Assembly (NCBI RefSeq): GCF_016592435.1
Contig: NZ_AP014545.1
Span: 992,001 to 1,056,000 of the forward strand
Reading direction: 5' to 3'
Origin: Amphritea japonica ATCC BAA-1530
Lineage (GTDB): Bacteria; Pseudomonadota; Gammaproteobacteria; Pseudomonadales; Balneatricaceae
DNA: 64,000 nt
Position 1 is the first letter of the stretch; every line of letters starts with the position of its first letter. Shown piece after piece: positions 6,960 through 30,130 of this stretch. The notes beneath the pieces were generated by a model, which worked only from the letters and a program-made list of their open reading frames with translations, was not told where the DNA came from and made no database searches. A program made the position numbers and the translations under genes.

Positions 6960-7514
6960 ATGGGTCACGCAAAAAAAGATGTTCCTTTTCAGCCTTTAAA
7001 GATTGCGGTATTGACTGTCTCTGATACTCGTACTCCGGAAAATGATACTTCAGGTGATGCGCTGGTATCGGGTTTAACGGAGGCAGGGCATGCTCTGGCG
7101 GATCACGTTATCTGTAAAGATGATGTGTATCAGCTGCGTGCGGTTGTCTCTAAGTGGATTGCAGATGAAGATGTGCAGTCTATTTTGGTAACTGGCGGAA
7201 CCGGTTTTACACTGCGCGACACAACCCCTGAAGCGCTTAAGCCGCTGTTTGATAAGGCGATAGAGGGTTATGGAGAGTTATTTCGTCAGCTGTCGTATGA
7301 TGAGATAGGTACGTCGACTATTCAGTCGCGAGCATTCGCAGGGGTGGCTAATCGAACGGTTGTCTTCTGTATGCCGGGTTCTACTGGCGCTTGCAAAACC
7401 GCCTGGAATGGCATTATTCGTGAGCAGTTAGATTCTCGTCATCGGCCATGTAATTTTGTTGAAATGGTTATGACAAATAAGCTTATTGATACTGCTTGTG
7501 GGCCGCGTGGATGA
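6960..7514 (+). CDS. moaB: Molybdopterin adenylyltransferase-type protein MoaB
   Basis: The 184-residue protein belongs to the MoaB/MogA family that acts on molybdopterin in cofactor maturation. It shows the family blocks LTVSDTRTPENDTSGD, VTGGTGFTLRDTTPEAL and the late FCMPGSTGACKTAWNGII, with the ligand-binding GGTG loop intact. Length equals that of E. coli MoaB. Unlike MogA it lacks extra C-terminal sequence. It is the first gene of a small cofactor group and overlaps moeA by 4 bases (ATGA), implying translational coupling. Bacterial MoaB may be partly redundant with MogA, so its exact catalytic share is less certain than its family. Confidence 0.93.
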   Translation: MGHAKKDVPFQPLKIAVLTVSDTRTPENDTSGDALVSGLTEAGHALADHVICKDDVYQLRAVVSKWIADEDVQSILVTGGTGFTLRDTTPEALKPLFDKAIEGYGELFRQLSYDEIGTSTIQSRAFAGVANRTVVFCMPGSTGACKTAWNGIIREQLDSRHRPCNFVEMVMTNKLIDTACGPRG

Positions 7515-8752: not shown

Positions 8753-8857
8753 GAAAATACGAACGATCCCCAGTGTTATTAGCTATGCTTTTGTTCATAT
8801 GCTTACTTATAGGTAAGTGGTTAGTTTTTTGGTTGTTTTGTTGTGAAGGTGTTGTGA

Positions 8858-9103
8858 ATGGTAAAGGTGCTTTTTTTTGCTTCTCTGCGTGAGACGCTGG
8901 GAGTTGATGAGATAAGTCATCAAGTGGATGGTTCAATTAATGCTGCTGAGCTTTTGACTGTATTGAAAGGTCGGGGAGAGGGTTGGAGCAAGGCTTTAGA
9001 CGGGCCGCTGCTGTGCTCGGTAAATCAGGAAGTTGCTCCTTTAGATGTTGTTATTTCAGATGGCGACGAAGTTGCTTTCTTTCCCCCCGTTACCGGCGGT
9101 TGA
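8858..9103 (+). CDS. moaD: Molybdopterin synthase small subunit MoaD
   Basis: This 81-residue ubiquitin-like protein carries sulfur as a C-terminal thiocarboxylate to molybdopterin synthase. It starts VKVLFFASLRETLG and ends FFPPVTGG; the terminal Gly-Gly is the essential modification site. It lies 105 bases after moeA and overlaps mobA by 4 bases. Its usual catalytic partner MoaE is not adjacent, so MoaE must be encoded elsewhere. The small size and the intact C-terminus make the assignment secure. Confidence 0.92.
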   Translation: MVKVLFFASLRETLGVDEISHQVDGSINAAELLTVLKGRGEGWSKALDGPLLCSVNQEVAPLDVVISDGDEVAFFPPVTGG

Positions 9104-9684
9104 ATACGTTGGATGTCATTATTCTTGCTGGCGGTGAAGGCCGTCGCATGGAAGGGCGGGATAAGGGACTGGTTGTATTTCAGTCGCAGCCGATGGTGGC
9201 TCATACTGTTGAGTTGGTGCGACCCATAGCCGCCAGGATAGTTATCAGTTGTAACCGCCATCTGCCTGAATATGCTGACCTTGCAGATCAGGTAGTGGAG
9301 GATGCTTTAGAGGGGTTTCAGGGGCCTTTGGCTGGGATTCATGCCGGGCTCAAGGTTTGTCAGTCAGATCAGGTGTTAATTCTACCTTGTGATACCCCGT
9401 TGCTTGAATTGCCGCTAATTAAGCGTTTACTGGTTTCAGCTAAAGAAAGCCCTCAGGGAATTACTGTTCTGTCAGAAGGCGATAAGCTCCATCCTTTGCA
9501 TGCAGTGATTCCTTTGTCGCTGGCGGGTGACTTGGAAAGCTGGTTGGCAGGGGGGCAGCGGGCAGTTCAGCGCTGGATGAGAATCCATCCGATGCAGATG
9601 CTAGATGCGGGTGATGCGTCTGAACAGTTGAGTAATCTGAATACCCTGCAGGCGCTCGAAGCGTTGGAAAGCGCAAAAAGCTAA
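9100..9684 (+). CDS. mobA: Molybdenum cofactor guanylyltransferase MobA
   Basis: A 194-residue nucleotidyltransferase that attaches GMP to the molybdenum cofactor, giving the bis-MGD form used by DMSO-reductase-family enzymes. The N-terminal signature DVIILAGGEGRRMEGRDKGL is present, followed by a Mg-binding ILPCDTPLL block. No ATG or GTG is available near the conserved N-terminus. The best start is TTG at 9100, which overlaps the moaD stop (TTGA) and gives exactly the length of E. coli MobA; a second TTG lies at 9109. Reading further upstream in this frame would place the gene inside moaD, which is unlikely. Confidence 0.9.
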   Translation: MNTLDVIILAGGEGRRMEGRDKGLVVFQSQPMVAHTVELVRPIAARIVISCNRHLPEYADLADQVVEDALEGFQGPLAGIHAGLKVCQSDQVLILPCDTPLLELPLIKRLLVSAKESPQGITVLSEGDKLHPLHAVIPLSLAGDLESWLAGGQRAVQRWMRIHPMQMLDAGDASEQLSNLNTLQALEALESAKS

Positions 9685-9702
9685 GTCATGGAAGAAGATT
9701 CT

Positions 9703-9745
9703 TATATAAAAGCGGCTTATTGTTTTCGGGGTGTGCTTTTATATA
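9703..9745. repeat. Perfect 11-bp inverted repeat between mobA and lrgA
   Basis: TATATAAAAGC at 9703-9713 is the exact reverse complement of GCTTTTATATA at 9735-9745, separated by 21 bases. No T-tract follows, so it does not look like a standard intrinsic terminator. It could be an RNA hairpin ending the mobA transcript or a protein-binding palindrome for the lrgAB promoter. The rest of the 215-base gap shows no other clear element. Confidence 0.5.
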
Positions 9746-9899
9746 GATTGACAACGTCATTTGGTCGGTTCTTTTAGTTAGTATGCCTGACAGAATCTGG
9801 TGATAAAAAAACACCGTTGTGTGTATGCAGGTGGTGAGGCTTTGCAGTGGTTGGTGTGACTTTACGTAACTCAAATTCGGCGAATATGCTGGAGTGTAT

Positions 9900-10262
9900 A
9901 TGCTAATAGGTTTTCTGATACTGCTGCTTTTCCAGTTTGCTGGCGAGCTGATTGTTATTGCCGTTGGAATGCCTGTGCCCGGACCAGTAGTGGGTATGGT
10001 GCTGTTGCTGATTGGGCTGATTATTAAGGGTAAGGTGCCTGAAAGTCTTCGAGTCCCGAGCGAAGCGCTGCTCAAGCACCTGGCATTGTTGTTTGTTCCG
10101 GCGGGGGTCGGCTTGATGACGCATTTTGGCTTGCTGAAGCAAGACTGGCTGGCTATTTTGTTGGCACTCATCGTCAGTACTGCGCTGACGATTGTGGTGA
10201 CGGCGCTACTTCTTAACCCTTCTGCGAAGAAGTTGCGCAATATTAACCAGGAAAATAGTTAA
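9900..10262 (+). CDS. CidA/LrgA family holin-like membrane protein
   Basis: About 120 residues forming four predicted membrane helices, with the family signature GMPVPGPVVGMVLLL and a later LLFVPAGVGLM. Such proteins are holin-like inner-membrane proteins paired with LrgB. They are linked to control of murein hydrolases in Gram-positives and to metabolite transport or overflow-metabolism roles elsewhere. A GTG lies at 9894, but the ATG at 9900 is better spaced from the CTGGAG ribosome-binding site just upstream. The stop overlaps the next start (TAATG), so it is coupled to the LrgB gene. Confidence 0.87.
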   Translation: MLIGFLILLLFQFAGELIVIAVGMPVPGPVVGMVLLLIGLIIKGKVPESLRVPSEALLKHLALLFVPAGVGLMTHFGLLKQDWLAILLALIVSTALTIVVTALLLNPSAKKLRNINQENS

Positions 10263-10972
10263 TGGAATTCTGGGTGTTTTTTACAGCTAAGCCGTTGATG
10301 TGGTTGATCGTTACTATTGCAACCTTTATAGCAACATCATGGCTTAATCGGCGAGTTGGTGGTACGCCTATACTGCATCCGGTGCTGGTGTCGCTCGCGC
10401 TGATTATTGTGTTTTTGCTTCTGACCGGCACTTCTTACGAAACTTACTTTGAAGGGGCGCAGTTTATACATTTCTTGCTAGGGCCGGCGACAGTGGCCCT
10501 GGCAGTTCCTTTGTTTGATCATTTTGAGCGGGTAAAAAAGATGCTGTTGCCGCTAGTGCTTGCCTGTATGGCTGGGGCTGTGACAGCTGCTGTATCTGCG
10601 TTGCTTGTTGCTCAGGCCCTGGATGCTTCTATGGGGACCTTGTTATCAATTGCACCGAAATCAGTAACTTCTCCTATCGCGATTGGCATTGCAGAGAAAA
10701 TAGGTGGTTATCCTTCACTTGCGTCAGGGTTGGTTCTTATTACCGGGGCAATAGGTTGTGTATTGGCACCGGTGATTTACCGGATTTTGAATATAACGGA
10801 TGAAGCTGTAAAGGGTTTTACGCTGGGGGTTTCTGCTCATGGAATGGGGACCGCATATGCTTTTGAATATGGATTGATGGCAGGTGCGTTTGGTGGCTTA
10901 GCGATGGGCATGACCGGAGCCTTTACTGCGTTTATGTTACCGCTGTTGATTCCTTTGTTGGGGGTTGGTTAG
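10262..10972 (+). CDS. LrgB family membrane protein
   Basis: A 236-residue, multi-helix integral membrane protein of the LrgB/CidB family. Conserved segments are LGPATVALAVPLF, APKSVTSPIAIGIAEKIGG and SAHGMGTAYAFE, each typical of the family. It pairs with the upstream LrgA-like protein, with overlapping stop and start. The family is described as an antiholin partner or as a transporter of small organic acids; the sequence cannot decide which applies here. No regulator of the LytSR type is encoded nearby. Confidence 0.9.
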   Translation: MEFWVFFTAKPLMWLIVTIATFIATSWLNRRVGGTPILHPVLVSLALIIVFLLLTGTSYETYFEGAQFIHFLLGPATVALAVPLFDHFERVKKMLLPLVLACMAGAVTAAVSALLVAQALDASMGTLLSIAPKSVTSPIAIGIAEKIGGYPSLASGLVLITGAIGCVLAPVIYRILNITDEAVKGFTLGVSAHGMGTAYAFEYGLMAGAFGGLAMGMTGAFTAFMLPLLIPLLGVG

Positions 10973-11001
10973 GAATAGTGTGATCCTTGATTGCTCTATA
11001 A

Positions 11002-11340
11002 GCGGTTTTACCACAGAGGGCACAGAGACCCTCGGAGAAAGGCTTTAGGTTCTTATATTAGGTTTTACTTTTCCTTGGTGTATTTTGTGTTCTCGGTGGT
11101 TCAATGTTTGTGTAAGGGCGGTTTTGCTTCAGAGGGCACAGAGATTCACGGAGAAGGGCTATAAGTTCTTGTATTAGGTTTTACTTTTCCTTGGTGTATT
11201 TTGTGTTCTCAGGAGTTTAATGTTTGTGTAAGAGCGGTTTTACCACAGAGGGTACAGAGAAGTGCTTTGGTGATGATAAAAGAAGTGCTTTTAATAATTG
11301 GTTTTCCTCTGTGTGCCTGTGATCTCTGTGGTTATTATTT
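11002..11340. repeat. Tandem 116-bp repeat built on CCACAGAG/CTCTGTGG inverted motifs
   Basis: The 518-base gap before zapE contains repeat units starting with GCGGTTTT at 11002, 11118 and 11234, an exact 116-base spacing. The first two units are nearly complete and similar throughout. The third is cut after about 30 bases and is followed near 11305-11335 by the inverted motif CTCTGTG...CTCTGTGG. Within each unit a left arm (CCACAGAGGGCACAGAG in unit 1) faces a right arm resembling TTTGTGTTCTCGGTGG, so each unit can fold into a long imperfect hairpin. A lone copy of the right arm recurs at about 13190-13207. No coding potential is seen. CCACAGAG-type repeats are, as I recall, dispersed in many environmental proteobacteria. 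Confidence 0.8.
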
Positions 11341-11490
11341 TTTGTAATAGGGGGTTGTTGCAGAAGCTATGAAGTTCTGCTTACGTAACGCTTATGTTGC
11401 ATTGCAAAAAACGTGGGTGAGTAGTAGAGTGCCGAACCTTGTTTTACTCCTTTTATTATCTGTTTTGGTTTGAATGGTATGGTTTCTGGC

Positions 11491-12603
11491 ATGACTCCGA
11501 TAGAGCGTTACAAAAAAGATCTTGAGCGGGACGACTTTTCCTACGATGCGGCTCAGGAAGTTGCCGTTAAACACCTGCAGCGTCTTTTTGATGATCTGGT
11601 TGCTCTGCAGAGCGCTGCACCTAAGCCGAAGGGGTTGGTGGGTCGCTTATCCAGCCGATTTAAAAAGCAGGAAGTGGAGCCGGTAAGGGGGCTTTATTTC
11701 TGGGGTGGGGTTGGACGGGGTAAAACCTATCTGATGGATACCTTTTTTGATAGCTTGCCATTTGAGCGTAAAGAGCGAACCCACTTTCACCGTTTCATGC
11801 AGCGTGTTCATAAAGAACTAACGCTTCTGGATGGTACGCCCAACCCGTTGGTTGCGATCGGAAAGAAATATGCTGAAGAGTTTCAGATTATCTGTTTTGA
11901 TGAGTTCTTCGTTACCGATATAACTGATGCGATGATTCTTGGTGGTTTGTTGGAAGAGTTGTTTAAGAATGGCGTCTCTCTGGTGGCTACTTCGAATATT
12001 GTCCCGGATGGTCTGTACGAAAATGGTTTGCAGCGTGCGCGTTTTCTCCCTGCAATCGATATGCTGAATAAGTATACTGAAGTGGTAAATGTTGATAGCG
12101 GCGTTGACTATCGTTTGCGTACGTTGGAGCAGGCTGAGTTATATCACTTTCCGTTAGATGCAGCTGCTGATGTGAGCCTGAATCAAAGCTTTGAAGGCCT
12201 GGCGCCCGATATTGATGAAGTGGTCGAATCTGATGCGCTGGATATCAATGGCCGCGATATTCATTTTCGTCGCTGTTGTGAAGATGTTATCTGGTTTGAT
12301 TTTTCTGAGCTGTGTGAAGGGCCTCGAAGTCAGAACGACTACATAGAGCTGGGTAAGATTTTTCATGCGGTACTGATTAGTAACGTGCCGCAATTGGGTC
12401 GTAGTAATGATGATGCTGCGCGGCGCTTTGTGAATCTGGTTGATGAGTTTTATGACAGCGGCGTGAAGCTGATTCTCTCTGCAGAAAAATCTATCCATGA
12501 AATCTATAGCGAAGGACGGTTGGAGTTCGAGATTCAGCGTACCCAGAGCCGGTTGTTAGAGATGCAGTCACACGAGTATCTGGCAAGAGAGCATCGGGCG
12601 TAG
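11491..12603 (+). CDS. zapE: Cell division-associated AFG1-family ATPase ZapE
   Basis: A 370-residue P-loop ATPase. Walker A is in YFWGGVGRGKTYLMD, Walker B in IICFDEFFVTD, and RCCEDVIWFDFSELC marks the C-terminal half, all typical of the YhcM/ZapE family. In E. coli ZapE binds FtsZ and lowers Z-ring stability; the family is related to mitochondrial AFG1. The start at 11491 (MTPIERYKKDLE) matches what I recall of Pseudomonas relatives; in-frame ATG 11479 and TTG 11470 are longer alternatives. It sits upstream of rplM-rpsI as in many gammaproteobacteria, but here an unusual repeat array separates them. Confidence 0.9.
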   Translation: MTPIERYKKDLERDDFSYDAAQEVAVKHLQRLFDDLVALQSAAPKPKGLVGRLSSRFKKQEVEPVRGLYFWGGVGRGKTYLMDTFFDSLPFERKERTHFHRFMQRVHKELTLLDGTPNPLVAIGKKYAEEFQIICFDEFFVTDITDAMILGGLLEELFKNGVSLVATSNIVPDGLYENGLQRARFLPAIDMLNKYTEVVNVDSGVDYRLRTLEQAELYHFPLDAAADVSLNQSFEGLAPDIDEVVESDALDINGRDIHFRRCCEDVIWFDFSELCEGPRSQNDYIELGKIFHAVLISNVPQLGRSNDDAARRFVNLVDEFYDSGVKLILSAEKSIHEIYSEGRLEFEIQRTQSRLLEMQSHEYLAREHRA

Positions 12604-13313
12604 CGGTAGTTGCCAGACACGGCTTCGTCGCTTGCTAGTGGTTAGACGTCGCTTCGCGACTTGCTAGAAAAGAAAAGTCACCTATGGTGGCTTTTTTTTG
12701 TTTTGGAGAGCCAAGGCTTTGGAGCTTGTTGGTTTTGTAGGAGGTGTGCCCTCACGCCGATGAGGTTAATATAGTCGCCAGACGCAGCTTCGCCGCTTGC
12801 TAGTCGATAGACGTCGCTTCGCGACTTGCTAGAAAGGAAAAGTTACCTATTGGTGGCTTTTTTGTTTTGAGAGCGAGGGCTTTGGAGCTTGCTGGTTTTG
12901 TAGGAGGTGTGCCCTCACGCCGATGAGGTTAATGTAGTCGCTAGACGTCGCTTCGCGACTTGCTAGAAAGGAAAAGTTACCTATTGGTGGCTTTTTTTGT
13001 TTTGGAGAGCGAGGGCTTTGGAGCTTGCTGGTTTTGTAGGAGGTGTGCCCTCACGCCGATGAGGTTAATGTAGTCGCTAGACGTCGCTTCGCAACTTGCT
13101 AGATAAAGAAAGGCTACTGTTGGTGGCTTTTTTGTTTTGGAATACCAGGTCTTCGGAGTTAGGTTCTTTTAGAGTGCTCTTCTCAATGTCCTTTGTGTTC
13201 TCTGTGGTAAATCGCTTTTATCGTTTTGGTTTTCTGTTTGTTCTTTTCTAGCAAGCAAAGCGAAGCTTTATGTCTTGCAGCGGCGAAGCCGTGTTCTAGT
13301 GACTAGCGGCTAA
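12604..13313. repeat. Repeat array between zapE and rplM: four units with terminator plus two REP-like hairpins
   Basis: A core containing GTCGC-TTC-GCGAC and ending CTTGCTAG recurs at 12644-12667, 12809-12832, 12943-12966 and 13079-13102; the last has one change. Each is followed by a terminator-like hairpin (AGT-ACC/GGTGGCT plus T-tract). After the first three, the element TGTAGGAGG...CTCACGCCGATG starts at 12736, 12899 and 13035. Period is about 135 bases, lengthened to about 165 in the first unit by an extra CTAG-bearing copy. Degenerate inverted copies (CTAGCAAGC..., GGCGAAGCCGTG) sit at about 13250-13310, so the array is bounded by oppositely oriented relatives of its first element at 12613. 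A dispersed copy of the GGAGG element lies at 18461. No ORF looks real. This resembles REP/BIME-type expansion. Confidence 0.82.
12676..12699 (+). terminator. Intrinsic terminator downstream of zapE (first of several copies)
   Basis: AGTCACC (12676-12682), a TAT loop and GGTGGCT (12686-12692) form a 7-bp stem with one wobble, followed by a run of T. Very similar hairpins with T-tracts (AGTTACC-TATT-GGTGGCT) recur near 12841, 12975 and 13110, because the terminator is part of the repeat unit described at 12604-13313. Confidence 0.7.
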
Positions 13314-13319
13314 ATTTAG

Positions 13320-13348
13320 TTGGCATCTTTACGCGGTTGCAGTATAAT
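13320..13348 (+). promoter_or_regulatory. Sigma-70-type promoter of rplM-rpsI
   Basis: TTGGCA (13320-13325) and a perfect TATAAT (13343-13348) are separated by 17 bases, followed by a GC-rich stretch (CCGCGCTCC) typical of stringently controlled ribosomal promoters. This predicts a leader of about 125 bases before rplM. E. coli L13 represses its own mRNA through the leader; a comparable site could exist here but I cannot identify it. Confidence 0.8.
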
Positions 13349-13482
13349 CCGCGCTCCTTTGGACTGGTCCAGGGATTTTTGACGTTGTGGGCCTCGGTTT
13401 ACAACCAATAATTATAAGGTCGTCGAGTGCTCTTAACTCTTTGAAGTTAAAGTATTTAGACTGATGTATAGGTAAAATTATC

Positions 13483-13911
13483 ATGACTACATTTAGCGCA
13501 AAGCCTGCAGAGGTTAAACGCGACTGGTATGTTGTCGACGCTGAGGGTAAAACTCTGGGTCGTATGGCTACTGAAATCGCTCGTCGTCTGCGTGGCAAGC
13601 ATAAAGCAGAATACACGCCTCACGTTGATACCGGTGATTACATCATCGTAATTAACGCTGAGAAAGTTAACGTAACCGGTAACAAGCGTAAGGATAAAAC
13701 TTACTACCGTCACACTGGTTACCCAGGTGGTCTGCGTGAAACTTCTTTCGAGAAGATGGTTGAAACTCATCCAACACGCACCATCGAACTGGCCGTTAAA
13801 GGTATGCTACCTAAAGGTCCCCTGGGTCGTGCTATGTACACCAAGATGAAGGTGTACGCTGGTGCAGAACATCCGCATGCGGCTCAACAGCCACAAGAAC
13901 TGAACGTCTAA
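13483..13911 (+). CDS. rplM: 50S ribosomal protein L13
   Basis: The 142-residue product has the family length and conserved blocks [46 protein letters not shown] and [20 protein letters not shown]13 is an early-assembly protein of the large subunit. It forms a two-gene operon with rpsI 13 bases downstream, driven by the promoter at 13320. Codon use is strongly biased (CGT, GGT, AAC, CTG), as expected for a highly expressed gene. Confidence 0.98.
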
Positions 13912-13924
13912 GGGGCAGGTGAAT

Positions 13925-14317
13925 ATGTCTTCAACTCAGTATTACGGCACAGGCCGTCGTAAGTCCTCTACTGCACGTGTATTTTTGCGTCCAGGTACAG
14001 GTAAAATCACTGTTAACCAGCGTGATCTGGATATCTACTTCGGTCGCGAAACTGCTCGCATGATCGTTCGTCAGCCTCTGGAGCTAACTGGTAACGCTGA
14101 AAAGTTTGATGTTTACATTACCGTTAAAGGCGGTGGTGGTACTGGTCAGGCGGGTGCTATCCGTCACGGTATTACACGTGCCCTGATGTCATACGATGAG
14201 ACTCTTCGTCCAGATCTTCGTGCTGCTGGTTTTGTTACCCGTGACGCACGTGAAGTTGAGCGTAAGAAAGTGGGTCTGCGTAAAGCACGTAAGAAGCCAC
14301 AGTTCTCCAAGCGTTAA
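13925..14317 (+). CDS. rpsI: 30S ribosomal protein S9
   Basis: A 130-residue protein identical in length to E. coli S9. It begins [20 protein letters not shown] and ends in the basic KKPQFSKR tail that reaches the decoding centre and touches P-site tRNA. The ATG at 13925 is preceded by AGGGGCAGG. A GTG at 13919 would add two residues and is not needed. Co-transcribed with rplM, it ends at a good intrinsic terminator. Confidence 0.98.
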
Positions 14318-22901: not shown

Positions 22902-23260
<359 letters not shown>

Positions 23261-23278
23261 CTAATTCCATAGTATTTT

Positions 23279-23312
23279 CAACAGGTTACGGATGACTTGT
23301 TGAGGGTCTTTT
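23279..23312 (+). terminator. rnpB terminator
   Basis: CAACAGGT (23279-23286) pairs with ACTTGTTG (23295-23302) around an 8-base loop with one wobble, followed by AGGGTCTTTT. Related hairpins occur in each downstream repeat copy. Confidence 0.7.
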
Positions 23313-23316
23313 CGCT

Positions 23317-23478
23317 ATGGTACATAAACTGGTACAAAACTCCCATCCCTTCGTTGTCCTTCGTGGCAATACTTATTACTTCCGTTACGTCATTCCAACT
23401 CATATCAGAAAGTTGTGTCCTTCGTTGCCTACTGAGGCTAAGAGAGGCCTTCACACAGACTCTACAACTAATTTATAA
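23317..23478 (+). pseudogene. Tyrosine-recombinase (phage-type integrase) N-terminal remnant
   Basis: A short frame of 53 codons from ATG 23317 to TAA 23478 encodes a peptide containing VVLRGNTYYFRYVIPTHIRKL followed by PSLPTEAKRGLHTDS (quoted in part). This pattern of Arg-Gly...Tyr-Tyr-Phe-Arg, Pro-x-x-Ile/Leu-Arg and a basic Gly/Ser-Leu-x-Thr end is the N-terminal arm-binding module of many site-specific integrases. The full gene would be about 350-400 codons with a catalytic Arg-His-Arg-Tyr domain, which is absent. The frame is cut where it merges with a second copy of the rnpB tail (CTCTACAACTAATTTA at 23460). It starts 60 bases after the rnpB 3' end, as integrase genes often lie beside their attachment site. 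Confidence 0.68.
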
Positions 23479-23750
23479 AATGCTTTCAAGGGACTACCTG
23501 TTGAAGGTATCAAGTCCTATATGAATGATTATCCACGACAACTCTATAAAAAACTCATGGCTTATCGGCGATCTCTACAACTAATTTATTGAATGTTTTC
23601 AATGGGTTGATTGGTGAAGGTGTCAAGTCCTATATGAATGATTGTCCACGATAGCTCTATAAAAAGCTCATGGCTTATCGGCGATCTCTACAACTGATTT
23701 CATTGTGCTTTCAACAGGTTAAGAATTGCCTGTTAAAGATGTTTTTAAGC
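23460..23750. repeat. 113-bp tandem repeats carrying the rnpB 3' end and terminator
   Basis: The tail motif CTCTACAACT of rnpB (native copy at 23253) recurs at 23460, 23573 and 23686, exactly 113 bases apart. The segments between include near-copies of the last 60 or so bases of rnpB: TCCTATATGAATGATT, TCCACGA and GGCTTATCGGCGA. After each tail comes a hairpin region resembling the rnpB terminator; the last (AACAGG 23713-23718 with CCTGTT 23729-23734, then T-run) is strong. The copies lack the rest of the ribozyme and cannot be active. The E. coli rnpB gene is, as I recall, also followed by roughly 113-bp repeats of its own 3' end. The rest of the gap to 23895 holds nothing I recognise. Confidence 0.88.
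23711..23746 (+). terminator. Terminator at the end of the rnpB repeat array
   Basis: TTTCAACAGG and CCTGTTAAAG form a stem (core AACAGG 23713-23718 with CCTGTT 23729-23734) followed by ATGTTTTT. It is the best-formed hairpin of the repeat series and probably the last stop for read-through from rnpB. Confidence 0.65.
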
Positions 23751-23895: not shown

Positions 23896-24774
23896 TTATC
23901 TGTTTGTTTCGATATCAAAGCCAAGCTCTGTTACTGCATCTAGCTGGTGCTGCGTGAATACTGTTGTATCGTGATTCTGGTAACGGCCAACAGAGATAGG
24001 GGCTACCATTTCGTTCATTTCCTGTATCGTGTGGGTTGATAGCTTTGCTTCAAGAAATTCAATAATTCGAGGGATTTCAGTTGTTGGTTCAGAGCAAAGT
24101 TTATCGTAGTTAACAAGTAAAAAACGATTAGGTAATAATGAGTCTCCTAATTGAATCGCGCGCTGGTTTGCTTTTATCCAATAATCCAGAGATAGCGATG
24201 CTTGAGCAGCGTTTACTGCGGGTGGCTCGTTGTTTATATATTCCCCCCAGTTTCGTAGCTGCTGCTGGTTTTTACTGTAAGCCATATCCAGGCCATTTCT
24301 AACTACATGAATATATCTAATGTTTTTAATTTTTCTGGCTATTTCTGGTAAGAATATGTGTGTGTTTGGCTCTTTCCATCCCCATCCTACATGTGAAGAA
24401 AAGTCGGGTGCATTTGACGATATTATCTTTTGTGCGATCAAGCGGTCGGCACCAGTAGGAGATTTGGCTGCATTGTGTAGCGTTGCCAGATATTCAAGAT
24501 AAGCAATCTCAGAAGAGGAAAGTTTTCCGTGGAGTCCTTGCGTCATTGCTTTTTGAAACAGATGAATGGCAATGTCGATCTCTTCCGTTGATGGAAATCG
24601 TTTGACCCAGTCGGGCCTTTTAAATAGTAAAGTAAAATATAAATTATCAAGTGGGTGGTTCAGGGTTTCGCCAATAAAAAAGCCGGCTGCTTGGATAATG
24701 TCAGCAATCAACCGAGTCCCACTACCCCCGATGCCTCCTATAGCGACAGGAGGAAGCTTTAGTTGGAAATTCAT
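23896..24774 (-). CDS. Sulfotransferase family protein
   Basis: A 292-residue protein with the features of PAPS-dependent sulfotransferases. A 5'-phosphosulfate-binding loop is near the N-terminus (VAIGGIGGSGTRLIADIIQ), and a 3'-phosphate-binding segment is in the middle (IRYIHVVRNGLDMAYSKNQ). GWKEPNTHIFLPEI lies between, as in many family members. Substrate cannot be read from sequence. ATG at 24774 is preferred, with AAGGAA upstream; a TTG at 24783 would add three residues. It is transcribed away from the second sulfotransferase and the rest of the glycan cluster. The gene is visibly A+T-rich compared with the wall cluster to the right. Confidence 0.82.
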   Translation of the reverse strand: MNFQLKLPPVAIGGIGGSGTRLIADIIQAAGFFIGETLNHPLDNLYFTLLFKRPDWVKRFPSTEEIDIAIHLFQKAMTQGLHGKLSSSEIAYLEYLATLHNAAKSPTGADRLIAQKIISSNAPDFSSHVGWGWKEPNTHIFLPEIARKIKNIRYIHVVRNGLDMAYSKNQQQLRNWGEYINNEPPAVNAAQASLSLDYWIKANQRAIQLGDSLLPNRFLLVNYDKLCSEPTTEIPRIIEFLEAKLSTHTIQEMNEMVAPISVGRYQNHDTTVFTQHQLDAVTELGFDIETNR

Positions 24775-24988
24775 ATCAATCAATTCCTTAGTGTTATCCT
24801 GGGTAATTAAGTGCTTTGATTTATGCTTTTGCGAGTGCTAACTTCGGGATGTCGTGTATGTTATGGAGCTTACCATGTGCAAGAGCATTATACAGGTGAG
24901 TACTGCGTTCTCTATTTGAGGCGGTTGGTTTTTTGAGTTTCTGCATAATAGTGACGGTTCGTTTCGGTTAAATATAACGAGTAGAAGT

Positions 24989-25690
24989 ATGGAAAGTTCA
25001 AAGGTATGTATTTTAGGGATGCATCGTAGTGGAACCAGTTGTCTTGCTGGTTGTTTGGAAGAACGGGGTCTTTTTCTTGGAGACGTTGTGAATGCTTCGC
25101 CACATAATAAGAAGGGAAATAAGGAAAATAAGGAGCTGCGCCGTCTTAATGATGATGTACTTGAGTCAAGTGGGGGGACATGGGATAGGCCTCCAGAGTT
25201 TATTTCTTGGAATGACGAACATCGGCAAAGACGCGACGATATTATAAATACCTTAAAAAATAACAGGCATTGGGGGTTTAAAGATCCTCGTGTGGTTTTG
25301 ACACTACCATTTTGGCTTGAAGCGCTTCCTGATATGAAGTTTGTCGGAACATTCAGGCACCCAAGTGCTGTTATTGCCTCTCTAACAAAGCGTCCGGGTC
25401 TGGCTCCGTCAGTTGCTCCCTTAAAGCTATGGACTCTTTATAATCGCAGCCTCCTGGAGGCGGTAAAACATTACGAGTTTCCTCTCATCTGTTTTGACAG
25501 GCCGCAGGATGAGTATCTGTATTCTATAGAGCAAGCAAGTGCTTACCTTGGTTTGCCTGAGGGCATTAATGTGTCAGGTGGCTTTTTTGAAGAAAATATT
25601 AGAACGCAGAGTATATTTAAAGAAAGTGACCTTGAGTTAGGAAGTGAAGAGCAGGCGATTTATAGAGAGTTGTTAGATAAGTCGTGTTAG
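24989..25690 (+). CDS. Sulfotransferase family protein (second type)
   Basis: A 233-residue protein beginning VCILGMHRSGTSCLAGCLEE, a clear 5'-phosphosulfate-binding loop of the sulfotransferase fold. HWGFKDPRVVLTLPFWLEAL then KFVGTFRHPSAVIASL follow, the latter matching the 3'-phosphate motif. It is shorter than the first sulfotransferase and differs throughout, so the two are not recent duplicates. Genes of this kind often sit in surface-polysaccharide clusters. It heads a run of five same-strand genes, 29 bases before the glycosyltransferase. Confidence 0.82.
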   Translation: MESSKVCILGMHRSGTSCLAGCLEERGLFLGDVVNASPHNKKGNKENKELRRLNDDVLESSGGTWDRPPEFISWNDEHRQRRDDIINTLKNNRHWGFKDPRVVLTLPFWLEALPDMKFVGTFRHPSAVIASLTKRPGLAPSVAPLKLWTLYNRSLLEAVKHYEFPLICFDRPQDEYLYSIEQASAYLGLPEGINVSGGFFEENIRTQSIFKESDLELGSEEQAIYRELLDKSC

Positions 25691-25719
25691 CGAAGTGAAT
25701 AGTATAATAAGAGAGAGCA

Positions 25720-26631
25720 ATGAATAACATATCCCTTTCAGTCGTTGTGATTTTTCATGAAATGCAACGTGAGGCAGAGCGTACACTGTACTCTCTGAGT
25801 GCTGCTTATCAGTCGGGTGTGTCTGCACTAGATTATGAGATTATTGCAATTGATAATGGCTCTGTTTGCCCTTTAAATCCTGATCGCGTGGGGGAATTAG
25901 GGCGGAATATAAAATATCATTATTTTGATACCGATTCAGTTTCACCTGTGGATGCAATTAACTATGGAGTAAGCATCGCTGAAGGTGAATTTGTCGCGGT
26001 GATTGTGGACGGCGCAAGAATGTCTACGCCAGGTTTGATTGGTAGAACCCTAAAAGCACTCGAATTAGTTGAGCAGCCGTTTGTTTGCGCGCTTGCCTGG
26101 CATTTAGGGCCTGACGTGCAAAAAAAATCTATGTTAGAGGGTTATAATCAATCCGAAGAAGATCTCCTCTTAGACTCAATTGATTGGCAGAAAAATGGTT
26201 ATAAACTCTTTGATATTTCTACTATAGCGCCGTCTTCTAAAGCTGGTTTTTTAGGGGGAATGCCGGGGGAGTGTAGTTGGTTTGCTATGCGGCGTTCCCA
26301 TTATCTGTATATGGGGGGCTATGATCCGAGGTTCCAGGCACCCGGAGGAGGGTTGGTTAATCACGATTTTCTGAACCGAATTACTCAGCAGTCTCAAATA
26401 TCACCAATCATTATTTTAGGTGAGGGGCTGTTTCATCAAATTCATGGTGGCGTTGCGACAAACTCAAAGCCTGGTGAGCACCCTTTGCCGAGCTTTATGA
26501 GGGATTACGAAAAAATTCATAATAGGCCTTTTAAATTTATCCGACATGAAAGTCCACTCTACTTCGGAGAAGTTTCAACTGAAGCGGCCCGCTTTCTGGC
26601 TAGTAGCATAGATAATGGTTATAAGTTTTGA
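25720..26631 (+). CDS. Family 2 glycosyltransferase
   Basis: A 303-residue GT-A-fold protein. It starts LSVVVIFHEMQREAERTLYSL, then YEIIAIDNGS, typical of GT2. At the place where a DxD motif is expected it reads FVAVIVDGARMSTPGLI, so the second acid is missing. Later come FLGGMPGECSWFAMRRSHYLYMGGYDPRF (quoted in part) and GGGLVNHDFLNRI, a plausible acceptor/catalytic loop. The stop overlaps the next start (TTGA). It may add a sugar to the glycan modified by its neighbours, or it may be non-standard in metal use. The family is firm, the acceptor unknown. Confidence 0.84.
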   Translation: MNNISLSVVVIFHEMQREAERTLYSLSAAYQSGVSALDYEIIAIDNGSVCPLNPDRVGELGRNIKYHYFDTDSVSPVDAINYGVSIAEGEFVAVIVDGARMSTPGLIGRTLKALELVEQPFVCALAWHLGPDVQKKSMLEGYNQSEEDLLLDSIDWQKNGYKLFDISTIAPSSKAGFLGGMPGECSWFAMRRSHYLYMGGYDPRFQAPGGGLVNHDFLNRITQQSQISPIIILGEGLFHQIHGGVATNSKPGEHPLPSFMRDYEKIHNRPFKFIRHESPLYFGEVSTEAARFLASSIDNGYKF

Positions 26632-27479
26632 TTGTTTTCAAACCTCGTCAAGTGTTTAAACCTCATCCTGTTCTTGGGTGGTCTTTGGCTCCTGGTGCTC
26701 AGATTGAGGTGCCATTTCGTAATAATATTATTCAAACTATTGGTTCTGATGGATGGCGTGTTACTCCCGGCCAAACAGAGGCAGCTGAATTCAATTTTGC
26801 GGTATATGGTTGTTCGTTTACCTATGGTACTGGGTTGGCTGATAGTGAAACTTTCGCAGCACTCCTTCAGAATTCATTGAAAAATGTAAATGTGTTAAAT
26901 CGAGGGGTTGGGGGACATGGTACTGTGCAGAGTTTCCTGCAGTTCCGACAGGATGTTAAAAAAGGTGTTGTTCAAGCTGCGGTGTTTGGTGTTATCAGTG
27001 ACCACAGGTTTCGTAATATAGCCCACCCACAAAGAATGCGACATTTTTTGAAAATGGATTGGTATGAGCGAGGCGTTGAGCATTTTCCTATTGCTAAGCA
27101 GGATCGAAATGGCAAACTGGAGATTGACTATGTAGCTATCTGGCAGCCAAGTATTTTGCGTCATGACTTTGATGTATTCCTTCCAAATGACTATATGTTA
27201 GATCAAGCTACTTTTTCAGTTTTTAAAGCGATAACGGAGTTTTCTGAGCTTCATGGTATCCCTGTGATAATTGCGCTGCTTGACCAGTTAGATCCAGAGT
27301 TTAATATTGCTATGTTGAGTGGTTTTTCGAATGCTATCGATGTGTCTGCTCCCTGGGATAAGTCTCATACGTTTCTGCCAAAGGATATACATCCGAATGC
27401 GTACGCTAATCGTCTCTTTTCTGAACGATTGTTGGTGCCGGTCAAAGGTTTATGCGAGTCTGTGGAACGGAAAATCTGA
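26628..27479 (+). CDS. SGNH/GDSL-fold hydrolase or acyl-modifying enzyme
   Basis: A 283-residue protein with SGNH-like landmarks. AVYGCSFTYGTGLADSETFAA holds the nucleophile Ser in a G-x-S-F-T context; VLNRGVGGHGTVQSFLQF supplies the block II Gly region. KDIHPNAYANRLFSERL is the block V Asp-x-His. These enzymes add or remove acyl groups from glycans. The start is TTG at 26628, overlapping the glycosyltransferase stop; no better start exists before the conserved region. Its own stop overlaps the carbamoyltransferase start (TGATG). No signal peptide, so it is likely cytoplasmic. Confidence 0.75.
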   Translation: MIVFKPRQVFKPHPVLGWSLAPGAQIEVPFRNNIIQTIGSDGWRVTPGQTEAAEFNFAVYGCSFTYGTGLADSETFAALLQNSLKNVNVLNRGVGGHGTVQSFLQFRQDVKKGVVQAAVFGVISDHRFRNIAHPQRMRHFLKMDWYERGVEHFPIAKQDRNGKLEIDYVAIWQPSILRHDFDVFLPNDYMLDQATFSVFKAITEFSELHGIPVIIALLDQLDPEFNIAMLSGFSNAIDVSAPWDKSHTFLPKDIHPNAYANRLFSERLLVPVKGLCESVERKI

Positions 27480-29335
27480 TGTCTGGTGAAAAAATTGTCT
27501 TAGGAGTTTCTGGTCTTTTTCATGATTCAGCTGCAGCACTCGTTAAAGGTAATAAGGTGCTGGCGGCAGCACAAGAGGAACGATTCACGCGTAAGAAGGG
27601 AGATGCCAGTTTTCCTGTTAATAGTATTAAATACTGTCTGAGGCACTTGCCTAAAGGTTGTGATTTGGACGCTGTGGCATTTTACGAAAATCCTCGTTTA
27701 AAAATGGATCGTATCTTTAAAAGTGCAGTAAGAAATGCTCCCAGAGGTGCGCCGATATGGGCTCAAGCACTGCGCGCGGTAGATGAGTTAAATCGACAGT
27801 TGCCCAAGGCGCTATTGGGTATTCTGGATGATCCGGAAAAACTATTTTTTTCGACTCATCATAGGTCGCATGCTGCCTCTGCTTTTTACCCATCCCCTTT
27901 CAGCAAGGCTGCAGTCTTGGTTGTGGATGGTGTGGGCGAGTGGTCGACAACCTCTATTTGGTCGGGTGACAGGAATGAGCTGGTTCCGCAGGGAGAGGTT
28001 CGTTTTCCTCATTCATTAGGACTGTTTTATAGTGCCTTTACCCAATACTGTGGTTTTAAGGTTAACTCTGGTGAATATAAGCTTATGGGGCTTGCTCCAT
28101 TTGGTAATCCGATATATGAACAGAAAATACTCGATGAAATGATTGATGTAAAACCGGATGGATCGTTCACGCTAAACTTAAAGTATTTTGAATTTCATAC
28201 GGGTGTAAGCACAATAAGTCCTTTGTTTGGTTCATTTTTTGGGGAGCCTGCCCGGCTGCCTGAAAGTCCTGTTTCTCAGCACTTTATGGATATAGCCGCT
28301 TCTGTTCAGTCAGTAATTAATCAGGTTATGCAGGCGTTGGCCCGTTCGGCGCTAGAGCTTACAGGGATGAATCGCCTTTGCCTTGCTGGTGGGGTCGCGC
28401 TCAATTGTGTAGCTAATAGTAAGATTTTTCTTAATACGCCAGGTCTTGAGGGTGTTTGGGTACAACCTGCGGCAGGGGATGCCGGAGGTGCTTTGGGTGC
28501 GGCGTTCGATGTGGCGCTACAGCTTTCGGAAAGGCCTAAACCGAGTATCGATAAAGCGATTAAAAATAAAGATGGCATGCAGGGTGGATATCTTGGTCCG
28601 CACTATTCCCCTGTTCAGATCGAGTCAGCACTGCAAAGAAACCGGCTAGTTTATACTAAGTATGAATCGGATGAGCAGTTGTGCCACGCTGTTGCTGACT
28701 TGTTGGCTAAGGGTCAGATTCTGGGGCACTTTGATGGGCGGATGGAATTTGGGCCCAGGGCCTTGGGGAATCGATCAATACTTGCGGATCCGCGACCTGT
28801 AGATATGATGAGTCGTGTGAATTTGAAAATTAAGTTTAGAGAAGGCTGGAGGCCCTTTGCTCCTTTAGTTTTGTTGGAAGAGTCTGAAAGGCTTTTTGAA
28901 GGTATAACCGAAAGCCCCTATATGTTGTTGGTTTCTAGGCTTAATAAGCGATTTTGTACCGGTCCTAAGGTAAATGATGTTCGAGGCTCAGGTGTTTATA
29001 AGTTGGCAGAATTGCAGCGGTCAGTAACGACGGAGTTTAATGCTATTAGTCATATCGACTATAGTTCTCGCTTGCAAACAGTAACCAATGAGAGTGAATC
29101 GCGGGTATATCGTATTCTTAAGGCGTTTCACGAATCTACTGGTTGTCCGATGCTATTGAATACCTCCTTTAATGTCCGTGGTGAACCCATTGTCTGTGCG
29201 CCAGGGCATGCAATTAAATGCTTTCTAAATACGCATATGGATGCGTTGGTTATTGGAGATTTTATCGTAAGTAAGAGTGCACAAGAGTCTTGGGTTGCCG
29301 GTAGAGTTGGGAGGATGAAATTTAATGACGACTAG
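27479..29335 (+). CDS. NodU/CmcH-family carbamoyltransferase
   Basis: A 618-residue enzyme expected to transfer a carbamoyl group from carbamoyl phosphate, via carbamoyl-AMP, to a hydroxyl of a sugar or small molecule. It begins IVLGVSGLFHDSAAALVKGN, with AAAQEERFTRKKGDASFP and HHRSHAASAFYPSPF (metal-binding His). A VVDGVGEWSTTSIW block, LAGGVALNCVANSKI and the late FDGRMEFGPRALGNRSIL are all family hallmarks. The C-terminal domain has RPFAPLVL and LNTSFNVRGEPIV. The ATG at 27479 is chosen because it overlaps the previous stop; a GTG at 27452 is unneeded. NodU modifies Nod factors, but the acceptor here is unknown. Confidence 0.93.
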   Translation: MSGEKIVLGVSGLFHDSAAALVKGNKVLAAAQEERFTRKKGDASFPVNSIKYCLRHLPKGCDLDAVAFYENPRLKMDRIFKSAVRNAPRGAPIWAQALRAVDELNRQLPKALLGILDDPEKLFFSTHHRSHAASAFYPSPFSKAAVLVVDGVGEWSTTSIWSGDRNELVPQGEVRFPHSLGLFYSAFTQYCGFKVNSGEYKLMGLAPFGNPIYEQKILDEMIDVKPDGSFTLNLKYFEFHTGVSTISPLFGSFFGEPARLPESPVSQHFMDIAASVQSVINQVMQALARSALELTGMNRLCLAGGVALNCVANSKIFLNTPGLEGVWVQPAAGDAGGALGAAFDVALQLSERPKPSIDKAIKNKDGMQGGYLGPHYSPVQIESALQRNRLVYTKYESDEQLCHAVADLLAKGQILGHFDGRMEFGPRALGNRSILADPRPVDMMSRVNLKIKFREGWRPFAPLVLLEESERLFEGITESPYMLLVSRLNKRFCTGPKVNDVRGSGVYKLAELQRSVTTEFNAISHIDYSSRLQTVTNESESRVYRILKAFHESTGCPMLLNTSFNVRGEPIVCAPGHAIKCFLNTHMDALVIGDFIVSKSAQESWVAGRVGRMKFNDD

Positions 29336-29675
29336 TAAGTTAGAATTAATGGAGTTATATGCAGATGTGATTCTGAAGGCCTCAGATGCGGGTGTCCTCA
29401 ACAAAGGTGAGCAAGTATTCCGTAGTAGTGATCCAAGCTATTTCTCGCCTCCAAGTCAGGATTTAGTATCGCCAAGTGTGGCTTTGTCAGATTTGTTGGA
29501 GGGTGGCCCCAGTTTTATGTTGGCTCTTGCTGCAACATACGAGATAGAAGGTGAGCACGCTCTTGCAAAAGCGGTAAGAGATGTTGAGTCTTTTTTGGCA
29601 GCTCCCGATGTGAATCTGGATATGAAAGAGTATAGAGCCCGCCGTATTCTTGATTATGTTTATCCCGTAGTTTAA
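29325..29675 (+). CDS. Uncharacterised 116-residue protein coupled to the carbamoyltransferase
   Basis: I do not recognise this protein. It overlaps the carbamoyltransferase end by 11 bases, which supports real translation. It is soluble, acidic and helical-looking, with no signal, membrane segment or Cys. Visible stretches are ELYADVILKASDAGVLNKGEQ, FSPPSQDLVSPSVALSDLL, then AATYEIEGEHALAKAVRDVESFL. The ending is RARRILDYVYPVV. It could be a small partner subunit or a regulator of the enzyme. Possible unrelated reading frames in the area are weaker. Confidence 0.6.
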   Translation: MTTSKLELMELYADVILKASDAGVLNKGEQVFRSSDPSYFSPPSQDLVSPSVALSDLLEGGPSFMLALAATYEIEGEHALAKAVRDVESFLAAPDVNLDMKEYRARRILDYVYPVV

Positions 29676-30039
29676 TGCTGTGTTTATTGATGTTGGTGCA
29701 TATCTTAGTAAAATCGCCGGCATTCAAGGTTAAGGTTTCTCTACTCTGCTGCAGAGATGGGGTGTTGATGTTATTTAAACGCTAGGCAGTGCTGATGCGA
29801 TGATGAATTTATAGTTATTCAGGTCATGGTGTCTTTACATGTTCATAGTGCTTTATTAAATATCGTGTATTTCTTTTTATTCACTTTAGTTGCGGCTGCT
29901 TTTGTCAGGGCCATTTTTGAGTTTTTTTAACTCTCTGTTAATCCAATGGTTTTTCTCCAGCGTTAGATTAATTACTAGTTCTGTATTTATCGAGCTAATA
30001 CTCCTTCCCATTTTGGTGCTTTCACTGACGTTTTCTTCC
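29676..30039. other. Intergenic region between the island and mraZ
   Basis: About 364 bases, A+T-rich, without a convincing gene. A CTCTGCTGCAGAG palindrome is at about 29745-29757 (ACTCTGCTGCAGAGAT). I saw no copy of the rnpB tail here, so no right-hand attachment site is evident. The only longer open frame (from 29890, 64 codons) is hydrophobic but low-complexity and lacks a ribosome-binding site. Confidence 0.4.
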
Positions 30040-30111
30040 TTGCAAAGCCGGGGGTTAATTTCTATAGTGTGCAGTAGTGGGTAAATGTGGGTAAATGTGG
30101 GTTAAATTGGT
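30040..30111 (+). promoter_or_regulatory. mraZ (dcw) promoter with MraZ operator
   Basis: TTGCAA (30040-30045) and TATAGT (30063-30068) are 17 bases apart, predicting a start near 30075. Three TGGG boxes lie just downstream at 30078, 30088 and 30098, spaced by exactly 10 bases (TGGGTAAATG unit), and a weaker fourth TGGT at 30108. MraZ of E. coli and other bacteria binds TGGG-type repeats separated by 5-6 bases to repress its own operon, so this is a strong autoregulatory operator. Confidence 0.85.
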
Positions 30112-30130
30112 TTAGCGGGAGGTTGTTTCA

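What the first reader, a model, noticed from the sequence alone, without database searches (positions are those of the whole stretch)
23896..29675. Sulfation-carbamoylation glycan cluster inserted between rnpB and the division cluster
Two distinct sulfotransferases, a GT2, an SGNH-fold enzyme, a NodU-type carbamoyltransferase and a small unknown protein lie together, A+T-rich, where related genomes usually have rnpB next to mraZ. The five plus-strand genes are tightly packed, four with overlaps. The set would be able to add sulfate, sugar, carbamoyl and perhaps acyl groups to one acceptor. I know no described pathway with this exact set; it is the best candidate for a new system here.
Basis: partly seen in the sequence, partly recalled or inferred. 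Interest (0 to 1): 0.75.

Follow-up and report, generated by a model that had tools for sequence, protein, structure and literature searches.

The report
Mobile carbamoylation cassette with orphan peptide
The six genes are a real, laterally acquired set that recurs in distant bacteria; its core is a carbamoyl-transferring enzyme, an SGNH-fold enzyme and a small unknown protein with a nearly invariant tail, which may be what these enzymes modify.

Summary
The six genes are real and AT-rich. They lie in an integration hot spot: the rnpB 3' tail is repeated and an integrase remnant follows; a congeneric genome keeps a long integrase frame there. CT has no match in the 16 other same-genus genomes searched. 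The set is not scattered: one Rhodobacterales genome (uncultured Nioella) has all six genes in the same order and orientation, and 20 loci in all, one on a plasmid, carry the core SGNH, carbamoyltransferase, small protein. In Hyphomonas and a Caulobacterales MAG the core sits between unrelated genes. The small protein matches no family, but a [YF]VY[PT][VT][VI] end follows CT in 21 of 21 loci, and the strict pattern occurs nowhere else in 18 genomes. The SGNH model's best solved match is CgnD, the leader-removing hydrolase of crocagin biosynthesis, a peptide pathway that also has a carbamoyltransferase. I therefore favour modification of the small protein's tail over glycan decoration, with sulfotransferases and GT2 as added tailoring; that is inferred, and polysaccharide genes beside two core loci speak for the rival.

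The parts
22902..23260 (+). rnpB (RNase P RNA, class A); its 3' end is the probable integration site
   Evidence: Rfam RF00010, 336 bits; extra partial 3' copies in 9 of the 14 other same-genus genomes with rnpB, some only about 20 nt
23317..23475 (+). 53-residue remnant resembling a DUF6538-type tyrosine integrase N-terminus
   Evidence: PF20172 E 7.7e-6, 25.9 bits, just under the cut-off of 27; related ORFs after rnpB sequence in G008, G010, G015; G015 keeps DUF6538 plus Phage_integrase in one 430-residue open frame, cut by the contig end
23511..23693 (+). two tandem imperfect copies of the rnpB 3' tail (23511-23580 and 23624-23693; 113-nt period)
23896..24783 (-). ST1, sulfotransferase, divergent from the other five genes
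   Evidence: PF13469 53.6 bits; 40% identical to the divergent sulfotransferase of the Tateyamaria plasmid set
24989..25690 (+). ST2, second sulfotransferase
   Evidence: PF13469 32.9 bits; 49% to Nioella; relatives directly upstream of a GT2 relative in 14 of 19 loci fetched from the same order, own genome included
25720..26631 (+). GT2 glycosyltransferase
   Evidence: PF00535 22.0 bits, just below cut-off; 50% to Nioella, 43% to a paralogue in the same genome
26628..27479 (+). SGNH-fold hydrolase or transferase, core gene 1
27479..29335 (+). class III (NodU/TobZ-like) carbamoyltransferase CT, core gene 2 (ORF listed from 27452; likely start ATG 27479)
   Evidence: PF02543 262 bits, PF16861 216 bits; NovN, GdmN, TobZ in PDB; 53.5% to the plasmid orthologue; clade support 1.0
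29325..29675 (+). small protein, 116 aa, ends in YVYPVV; core gene 3, candidate acceptor or precursor
   Evidence: no Pfam family; such an end follows CT in 21 of 21 loci; strict tail pattern once per genome in 15 of 18 genomes
29868..30038 (.). zone where same-genus homology upstream of mraZ resumes (right edge of the insertion)
   Evidence: blastn against same-genus rnpB-mraZ regions: homology starts at 29868 to 30038, depending on the genome

Best explanation
A laterally acquired tailoring cassette, probably brought to the rnpB 3' end by DUF6538-type integrase elements that have since decayed. Shown: the set recurs in another class and on a plasmid; its conserved core is SGNH enzyme, O-carbamoyltransferase and small protein; the small protein's C-terminal hexapeptide is far more conserved than the rest of it. 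Inferred: the small protein is the substrate. The carbamoyltransferase makes carbamoyl-AMP and transfers the carbamoyl group to the tail, whose only invariant hydroxyl side chain is Tyr113; the CgnD-like SGNH enzyme cleaves or acyl-processes the modified tail, as CgnD frees the crocagin core; where present, ST1 and ST2 sulfate and GT2 glycosylates the product. Two working models fit: a RiPP (a ribosomally made, modified peptide), or a HypE-like partner protein that carries a carbamoyl group on its C-terminus.
Against: No modified product, binding or cleavage is shown. In one search the small genes were located by their tail after CT; by tblastn the window's small protein does not find the plasmid one (best E 0.75 off-gene, 7.8 at its end), though it finds others at 28-36%. 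CgnD resemblance is structural only (15% identity): a profile of 16 SGNH sequences did not find CgnD at E up to 1, and SGNH proteins of other carbamoyltransferase loci may look the same (untested). CgnD's triad Asp, three residues before His, is Asp in only 2 of 16 here. The crocagin paper says its cluster is an outlier: related clusters have a glycosyltransferase in place of the carbamoyltransferase. In most RiPPs, from recall, the leader is conserved and the core varies, the reverse of this; about 100 residues before the tail is long for a leader. None of the six proteins matches a dioxygenase, radical-SAM or transporter family. The small protein's model is weak (pLDDT 74, pTM 0.41), so the tail could be a docking peptide. 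Polysaccharide-type genes lie near the core in L276 and L290.
Confidence: 0.4

Rival explanations
1. Surface glycan or glycoprotein decoration: SGNH, carbamoyltransferase, sulfotransferases and GT2 decorate a cell-surface glycan or a secreted collar-domain protein made by other loci; the small protein is an accessory.
For: ST2-GT2 relatives recur as a pair in the order: ST2 directly upstream of GT2 in 14 of 19 loci, and the two such loci tested have an ABC-2 exporter pair, one also acyltransferase-3 and a methyltransferase. Two core loci have polysaccharide-type genes nearby: RmlD and a GT2/RgpF protein in L276, group 1 glycosyltransferases in L290. Carbamoyltransferase relatives at about 50% in several cases have a distant SGNH gene nearby. 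Exactly three secreted Collar-domain (PF07484) proteins lie beside the core in 11 of 20 loci.
Against: In Hyphomonas the tested neighbours of the core are housekeeping families. Collar proteins were not found in 4 of 10 core-bearing genomes that lack adjacent ones, Nioella among them; the window's genome has two, about 1.1 Mb away. The nearly invariant tail of the small protein is unexplained.
Confidence: 0.32
2. The small protein is an obligate adaptor: its tail docks into the carbamoyltransferase or SGNH enzyme to form a complex, and the substrate is an unknown metabolite or lipid.
For: The small gene overlaps or abuts the carbamoyltransferase end, in the same relative frame in 20 of 20 loci scored, which suggests coupled synthesis. 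Predicted all-helical with flexible linkers.
Against: No structural or co-evolution evidence for a docking site; in the tail only Val112 and Tyr113 are invariant over 21 loci, which suits a reaction site as well as an interface.
Confidence: 0.2
3. The window copy is a decaying relic of an integrated element and no longer does anything.
For: The integrase frame is 53 residues and no right-hand rnpB repeat was seen; GC is below the flanks.
Against: All six ORFs are open over the length of their orthologues and keep the conserved residues tested in SGNH and CT.
Confidence: 0.06

Closest known systems
Crocagin biosynthesis (RiPP; CgnA precursor, CgnD hydrolase, CgnI carbamoyltransferase), Chondromyces crocatus
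   Same: A hydrolase of CgnD-like predicted fold, a carbamoyltransferase and a gene-encoded small peptide or protein with a C-terminal candidate core; passages and section 10 read in PMC10070186.
   Different: No dioxygenase family among the six proteins, CgnB/CgnE not sought by profile; the small proteins are 104-118 aa, CgnA has an 18-residue leader; hexapeptide tail, not Ile-Tyr-Trp (the Ile recalled); sulfotransferases are extra; the crocagin-like clusters described besides crocagin's own have a glycosyltransferase in place of the carbamoyltransferase.
HypF/HypE S-carbamoylation ([NiFe] hydrogenase maturation)
   Same: Carbamoyl-AMP chemistry with YrdC-like and Kae1-like domains, acceptor at a partner protein's C-terminus (PMC6022934 and PMC9633730, passages).
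   Different: Acceptor there is a C-terminal Cys; the tail here has none; domain order is reversed and HypF has two further domains.
NodU, TobZ, NovN, GdmN class III O-carbamoyltransferases
   Same: Both Pfam domains over full length; NovN, GdmN and TobZ match in the PDB.
   Different: NodU equivalog score 110.7 against a cut-off of 1000; forms its own clade with its own partners among the 91 sequences compared.
Carbamoyltransferase loci with SGNH and two small neighbours (labels SxtJ and DUF5989 recalled, not called by HMM)
   Same: Carbamoyltransferase 44-50% identical, in several with a distant SGNH gene nearby.
   Different: Those small neighbours are not seen beside the window CT; a small protein without a strongly hydrophobic stretch and with the conserved tail follows CT instead.

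Membership tests
Class III O-carbamoyltransferase (NodU/TobZ type) | Carbam_trans_N and Carbam_trans_C domains over their full length | tested here: met
   262.4 and 216.2 bits, cut-offs 24 and 27
Class III O-carbamoyltransferase (NodU/TobZ type) | HxxxH and Asp metal-site positions (recalled for TobZ) | tested here: met
   H136, H140, D159, D343 kept in window and plasmid orthologue; HH..H block aligns with NovN
NodU (nodulation carbamoyltransferase) | NCBIfam NF041651 equivalog cut-off | tested here: not met
   110.7 bits against 1000
Sulfotransferase (PF13469) for ST1 and ST2 | Pfam gathering score | tested here: met
   53.6 and 32.9 bits, cut-off 27
SGNH/GDSL hydrolase | Pfam gathering score of Lipase_GDSL_2 | tested here: not met
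   15.5 bits against 32.9
SGNH/GDSL hydrolase | SGNH fold | tested here: met
SGNH/GDSL hydrolase | Ser, His and Asp catalytic residues | tested here: inconclusive
   Ser63 and His255 invariant in 16 of 16; residue two before His is Asp in 14 and Asn in 2; residue three before His is Asp in 2 of 16
Crocagin-type RiPP pathway | CgnD-like hydrolase | tested here: inconclusive
   Top structural match, no sequence match at E up to 1
Crocagin-type RiPP pathway | CgnC dioxygenase in the cluster | tested here: not met
   No dioxygenase family among the six proteins; genes elsewhere in the genome not searched
Crocagin-type RiPP pathway | CgnB/CgnE peptide-binding proteins | not tested
   Not sought by profile
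RiPP (general) | precursor shown to be modified and released | not testable with these tools
   Needs expression and mass spectrometry
Carbamoyltransferase-SxtJ-DUF5989-SGNH type locus | the two small neighbours of the carbamoyltransferase (labels recalled) | tested here: not met
   CT's neighbours here are SGNH and the small protein, whose highest 19-residue hydropathy is 1.27
Element integrated at rnpB | duplicated rnpB 3' end beside a site-specific integrase | tested here: met
   two tail copies and a DUF6538-like remnant; long integrase frame after rnpB in G015
Element integrated at rnpB | second repeat at the far end of the insert and an intact integrase | tested here: not met
   no 10-mer of the rnpB 3' end in 29676-30130; integrase frame is 53 residues

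The most novel reading that the evidence does not exclude
A new kind of protein-tail or peptide modification system: a NodU-type carbamoyltransferase carbamoylates an invariant tyrosine in the C-terminal hexapeptide of a partner protein, a CgnD-like SGNH enzyme processes that tail, and sulfotransferases and a GT2 elaborate it; the minimal three-gene form is spread through Alphaproteobacteria and moves on plasmids and integrase islands into other classes.
Probability: 0.31. Interest if true: 0.85.

Novelty: new variant of a known kind. Interest (0 to 1): 0.62.

Why it matters
If the small protein's tail is the substrate, this would be a compact three-gene modification system with an easily tested product, would extend O-carbamoyltransferases to a protein or peptide acceptor, and would give a genome-mining handle (the tail motif) for a peptide family that my paper searches did not reach. 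Even if not, it shows that the set is a conserved mobile system and not a local patchwork, and it marks the rnpB 3' end as an integration hot spot in this genus.

Tried and rejected
Chance clustering: rejected, since Nioella has the same six genes in the same order and orientation. Genus housekeeping locus: rejected, CT has no match in 16 of 16 other same-genus genomes. Phage or defence cassette: no PADLOC match for any of the six at E 0.01; PHROGs only for the carbamoyltransferase; no SGNH relative in the phage collection; CT relatives at 29-49% in 7 viral contigs, none with the clade's pattern. Collar proteins as obligatory acceptor: rejected. Tail as a general sorting signal: not supported, one match per genome at most. 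Promoter and terminator scan: no more than shuffles give, so no operon claim rests on it. A degenerate SGNH scan of viral contigs hit 600 stretches with no relative, so I wrote a carbamoyltransferase pattern instead. Foldseek with the small protein: nothing at E up to 0.001. ST1 against PDB sequences: nothing at E up to 1.

Rows dropped: L254 (a 115-residue carbamoyltransferase fragment at a contig end) was left out of the core count. L249's SGNH was left out of the SGNH alignment after a coordinate error. The small-protein alignment and its statistics use 14 of 21 loci. The tree uses 91 carbamoyltransferases: 21 core and 70 others that I picked from those held, leaving out short pieces. The overlap count has 20 of 21 loci; Phaeobacter (L290) failed the script's motif. 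Weaker sulfotransferase-like matches (L273, L276, a second one in L293) were not counted as ST2. Five of the other 80 pattern loci have a distant SGNH match (24-32%; L165, L192, L207, L211, L228) and were not counted as core. L203 and L235 were seen only as 8-kb pieces because their genomes are not held, and several others end at contig ends, so neighbour counts are lower bounds.

Literature: searches found no paper on this set in the PMC library held; listings only. Saxitoxin papers appeared because of the carbamoyltransferase and SxtJ terms; none was opened. Read: PMC10070186 (passages and section 10), PMC11231755, PMC6022934 and PMC9633730 (passages). Searches are listings.
Full report
Pfam supports both sulfotransferases and the CT clearly, the GT2 marginally, and gives the SGNH protein a sub-threshold match. 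GC of the six genes is 41.7-45.3%, of the seven flanking genes measured 48.8-52.1%. Four of the five plus-strand genes take part in overlaps, as stated; the CT probably starts at 27479, so that only 1 nt overlaps SGNH.

The place is an integration hot spot. Downstream of rnpB are two further imperfect copies of its 3' tail, spaced 113 nt, and a 53-residue ORF that resembles the DUF6538 start of tyrosine integrases (PF20172, 25.9 bits, just under its cut-off of 27). Fifteen of 17 genomes searched in the genus, the window's own among them, gave an rnpB match. Of the 14 others, 9 carry at least one extra partial copy of the tail, some only about 20 nt, three of about 120-150 bp (G008, G010, G015), and the same three carry DUF6538-like starts there. 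G015 has one open frame of 430 residues with DUF6538 and Phage_integrase directly after rnpB, cut by the contig end. In G008 and G010 the cargo at this place is different. Homology with other same-genus genomes resumes between 29868 and 30038, depending on the genome. No rnpB repeat was seen at the right end, so the integration is inferred from one side and from relatives. CT has no match in the 16 other same-genus genomes; 8 of 116 family genomes match, the window's own included.

Where else the set occurs. In 369 genomes of the class, only the window's own SGNH gave a full-length close match; 15 others gave distant ones. In 293 genomes of the order, GT2 matches occur in 25 and CT matches in 84, own genome included; ST2 lies directly upstream of GT2 in 14 of 19 loci that I fetched, and the two tested have ABC exporter genes; the roughly 50% CTs sit with other partners. 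No CT or SGNH relative was found beside GT2 in those 19 loci at E 1e-10, an ST1 relative in one. The small protein matches only itself at E 0.001; 17 other genomes gave weak matches up to E 0.1. So the two halves live apart in its own order, as far as sampled.

A Tateyamaria omphalii plasmid changed the picture: ST1 (40%), SGNH (46% over 275 residues; the deposited gene starts late), CT (53%) and a small protein with the same end, in the same arrangement without ST2-GT2. The small proteins of window and plasmid do not find each other by tblastn and align at 29%; place and tail link them. From window and plasmid I wrote a CT pattern specific to this clade (among 161 loci held it matches only the window's own and the plasmid) and scanned the genome collection of 84,980 species: 99 stretches. 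Nineteen of the 99 have an SGNH gene of 42-64% identity next to the CT, counting the better of two queries, window or plasmid (the Tateyamaria syn59 one is 85% to the plasmid); all 19 are Alphaproteobacteria by their titles (taxonomy recalled), mostly Rhodobacterales. Of the other 80, five have a distant SGNH match, one is too short to judge, the rest showed none. With the plasmid that makes 20 loci. In the tree the 21 core CTs form one clade (support 1.0; 91 tips), with the window beside a Caulobacterales MAG (support 0.964). Its GC over the insert (43.4%) is below the 50.6-69.9% of the other loci, each measured over the whole stretch held, so the donor was not a typical high-GC one or the genes have adapted.

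Anatomy across the 20 loci: SGNH, CT and small protein in 20 of 20; ST1 nearby in 12; exactly three Collar-domain secreted proteins in 11; ST2 in 4; GT2 in 1. That one, uncultured Nioella, has all six genes in the window's order and orientation. In Hyphomonas johnsonii the core lies between ketoacyl synthase, YceG and guanylate kinase on one side and OsmC, rRNA dimethylase and PdxA on the other; in the Caulobacterales MAG beside tRNA m1G methyltransferase, two proteins of no family and an ABC ATPase. Against that, Sinirhodobacter (L276) has RmlD and a GT2/RgpF protein and Phaeobacter (L290) two group 1 glycosyltransferases within about 10 kb. So the minimal unit is SGNH-CT-small, sulfation and glycosylation look like additions, and some copies sit in polysaccharide surroundings.

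The small protein. No Pfam, NCBIfam, PADLOC or PHROGs family for the window protein; among 14 relatives only isolated weak hits. Its body varies (mean pairwise identity 0.30), its last six residues do not (0.86). All 21 loci have an ORF after CT ending in [YF]VY[PT][VT][VI]; I located them by that end, and 11 of the 20 outside the window were also found by tblastn there, the plasmid's being itself a query. The same end was not found in 1.88 Mb of other loci held. In 18 whole genomes the strict pattern occurs once in 15, at the small gene, and not in 3 whose small proteins have variant tails; the reversed control pattern gave 2 hits. The model is helical with loose linkers and of low confidence, without a solved relative.

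The SGNH protein. Ser63 and His255 are invariant in 16 of 16 sequences, but the Asp that precedes His by three residues in CgnD is there in only 2 of 16. Its model is confident. The best solved match by two methods is CgnD, which in crocagin biosynthesis frees the modified core from its leader, in a cluster that also has a carbamoyltransferase, CgnI (PMC10070186). The match spans model residues 4-273; TesA-type matches start at about 54, though 16 of the 50 rows, CgnD included, begin before residue 50. Against it: no sequence match at E up to 1, 15% identity, and I could not test whether SGNH proteins of other CT loci look the same.

How it most likely works. Shown: recurrence in another class and on a plasmid, conservation, gene families, tail. 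Inferred: CT forms carbamoyl-AMP and transfers the group to the tail of the small protein, where Tyr113 is the one invariant hydroxyl; SGNH processes the tail; ST1, ST2 and GT2 elaborate it. HypF, with the same chemistry, modifies the C-terminus of HypE (PMC6022934, PMC9633730), so a tail acceptor is not without precedent. I put 0.40 on this, 0.32 on glycan or surface-protein decoration, 0.20 on an adaptor role, 0.06 on a relic. It is not crocagin: no dioxygenase family is in the set, and the other crocagin-like clusters described lack a carbamoyltransferase. It is not NodU: the equivalog score is far below its cut-off. It works like parts of both at most.

Novelty. I found no paper on this set in the library held (listings). 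The enzymes belong to known families; the three-gene unit and the tail are, as far as these searches reach, undescribed. I file it as a new variant of a known kind, with a bolder reading left open.

Noticed in passing
window 23203-23693 and same-genus loci L035-L048: Extra partial copies of the rnpB 3' end follow rnpB in 9 of 14 other same-genus genomes with rnpB, with DUF6538-like integrase starts in three; an integration hot spot whose tandem tails look like repeated insertion and loss.
   Followed up: partly
L317 (G015:C40:27900-29837), frame from 648: An open DUF6538 plus Phage_integrase frame of 430 residues directly after rnpB, cut by the contig end.
   Followed up: partly
L091 (own genome 1197000-1216900), 9037-14380: A 982-residue protein with methyltransferase, GT2 and RMNT_CmcI domains, whose GT2 part is 43% identical to the window GT2, beside a sulfotransferase-like ORF and a second DUF6538 match (1204543).
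   Followed up: partly
L150, L203, L235, L271, L272, L276, L277, L278, L280, L291, L292: Three secreted Collar-domain (PF07484) proteins in tandem, exactly three each time, beside the core in 11 of 20 loci; the window's genome has two elsewhere (2120393-2121390).
   Followed up: partly
CT-small junction, window 29325-29335 and 19 other loci: The small gene lies in the same frame relative to CT in 20 of 20 loci scored, with candidate starts inside the CT end, mostly TTG; translational coupling, or perhaps a frameshift product, not tested.
   Followed up: no
L161 (Roseovarius faecimaris plasmid): An ST1 relative (32%) directly after a tail fibre domain gene and followed by a methyltransferase and an FG-GAP gene (deposited annotation); the Tateyamaria plasmid has a tail fibre domain and an FG-GAP gene near its ST1 too.
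   Followed up: no
L274 2467-3402 and L278 8155-9114: A 320-residue protein without Pfam family directly after ST2, in the place that GT2 holds in the window.
   Followed up: no
L294 7945-8821: The ST1 relative of Rhodobacter sp. NTK016B matches in two overlapping pieces, so it may be frame-broken.
   Followed up: no
L102 (G632, same order), 7032-14277: An ST1 relative (28%) in the same stretch as an ST2-GT2 pair; no SGNH or CT relative was found there at E 1e-4.
   Followed up: no
L154-L160 (viral contigs): Carbamoyltransferase relatives (29-49%) in seven IMG/VR contigs; contexts not examined.
   Followed up: no
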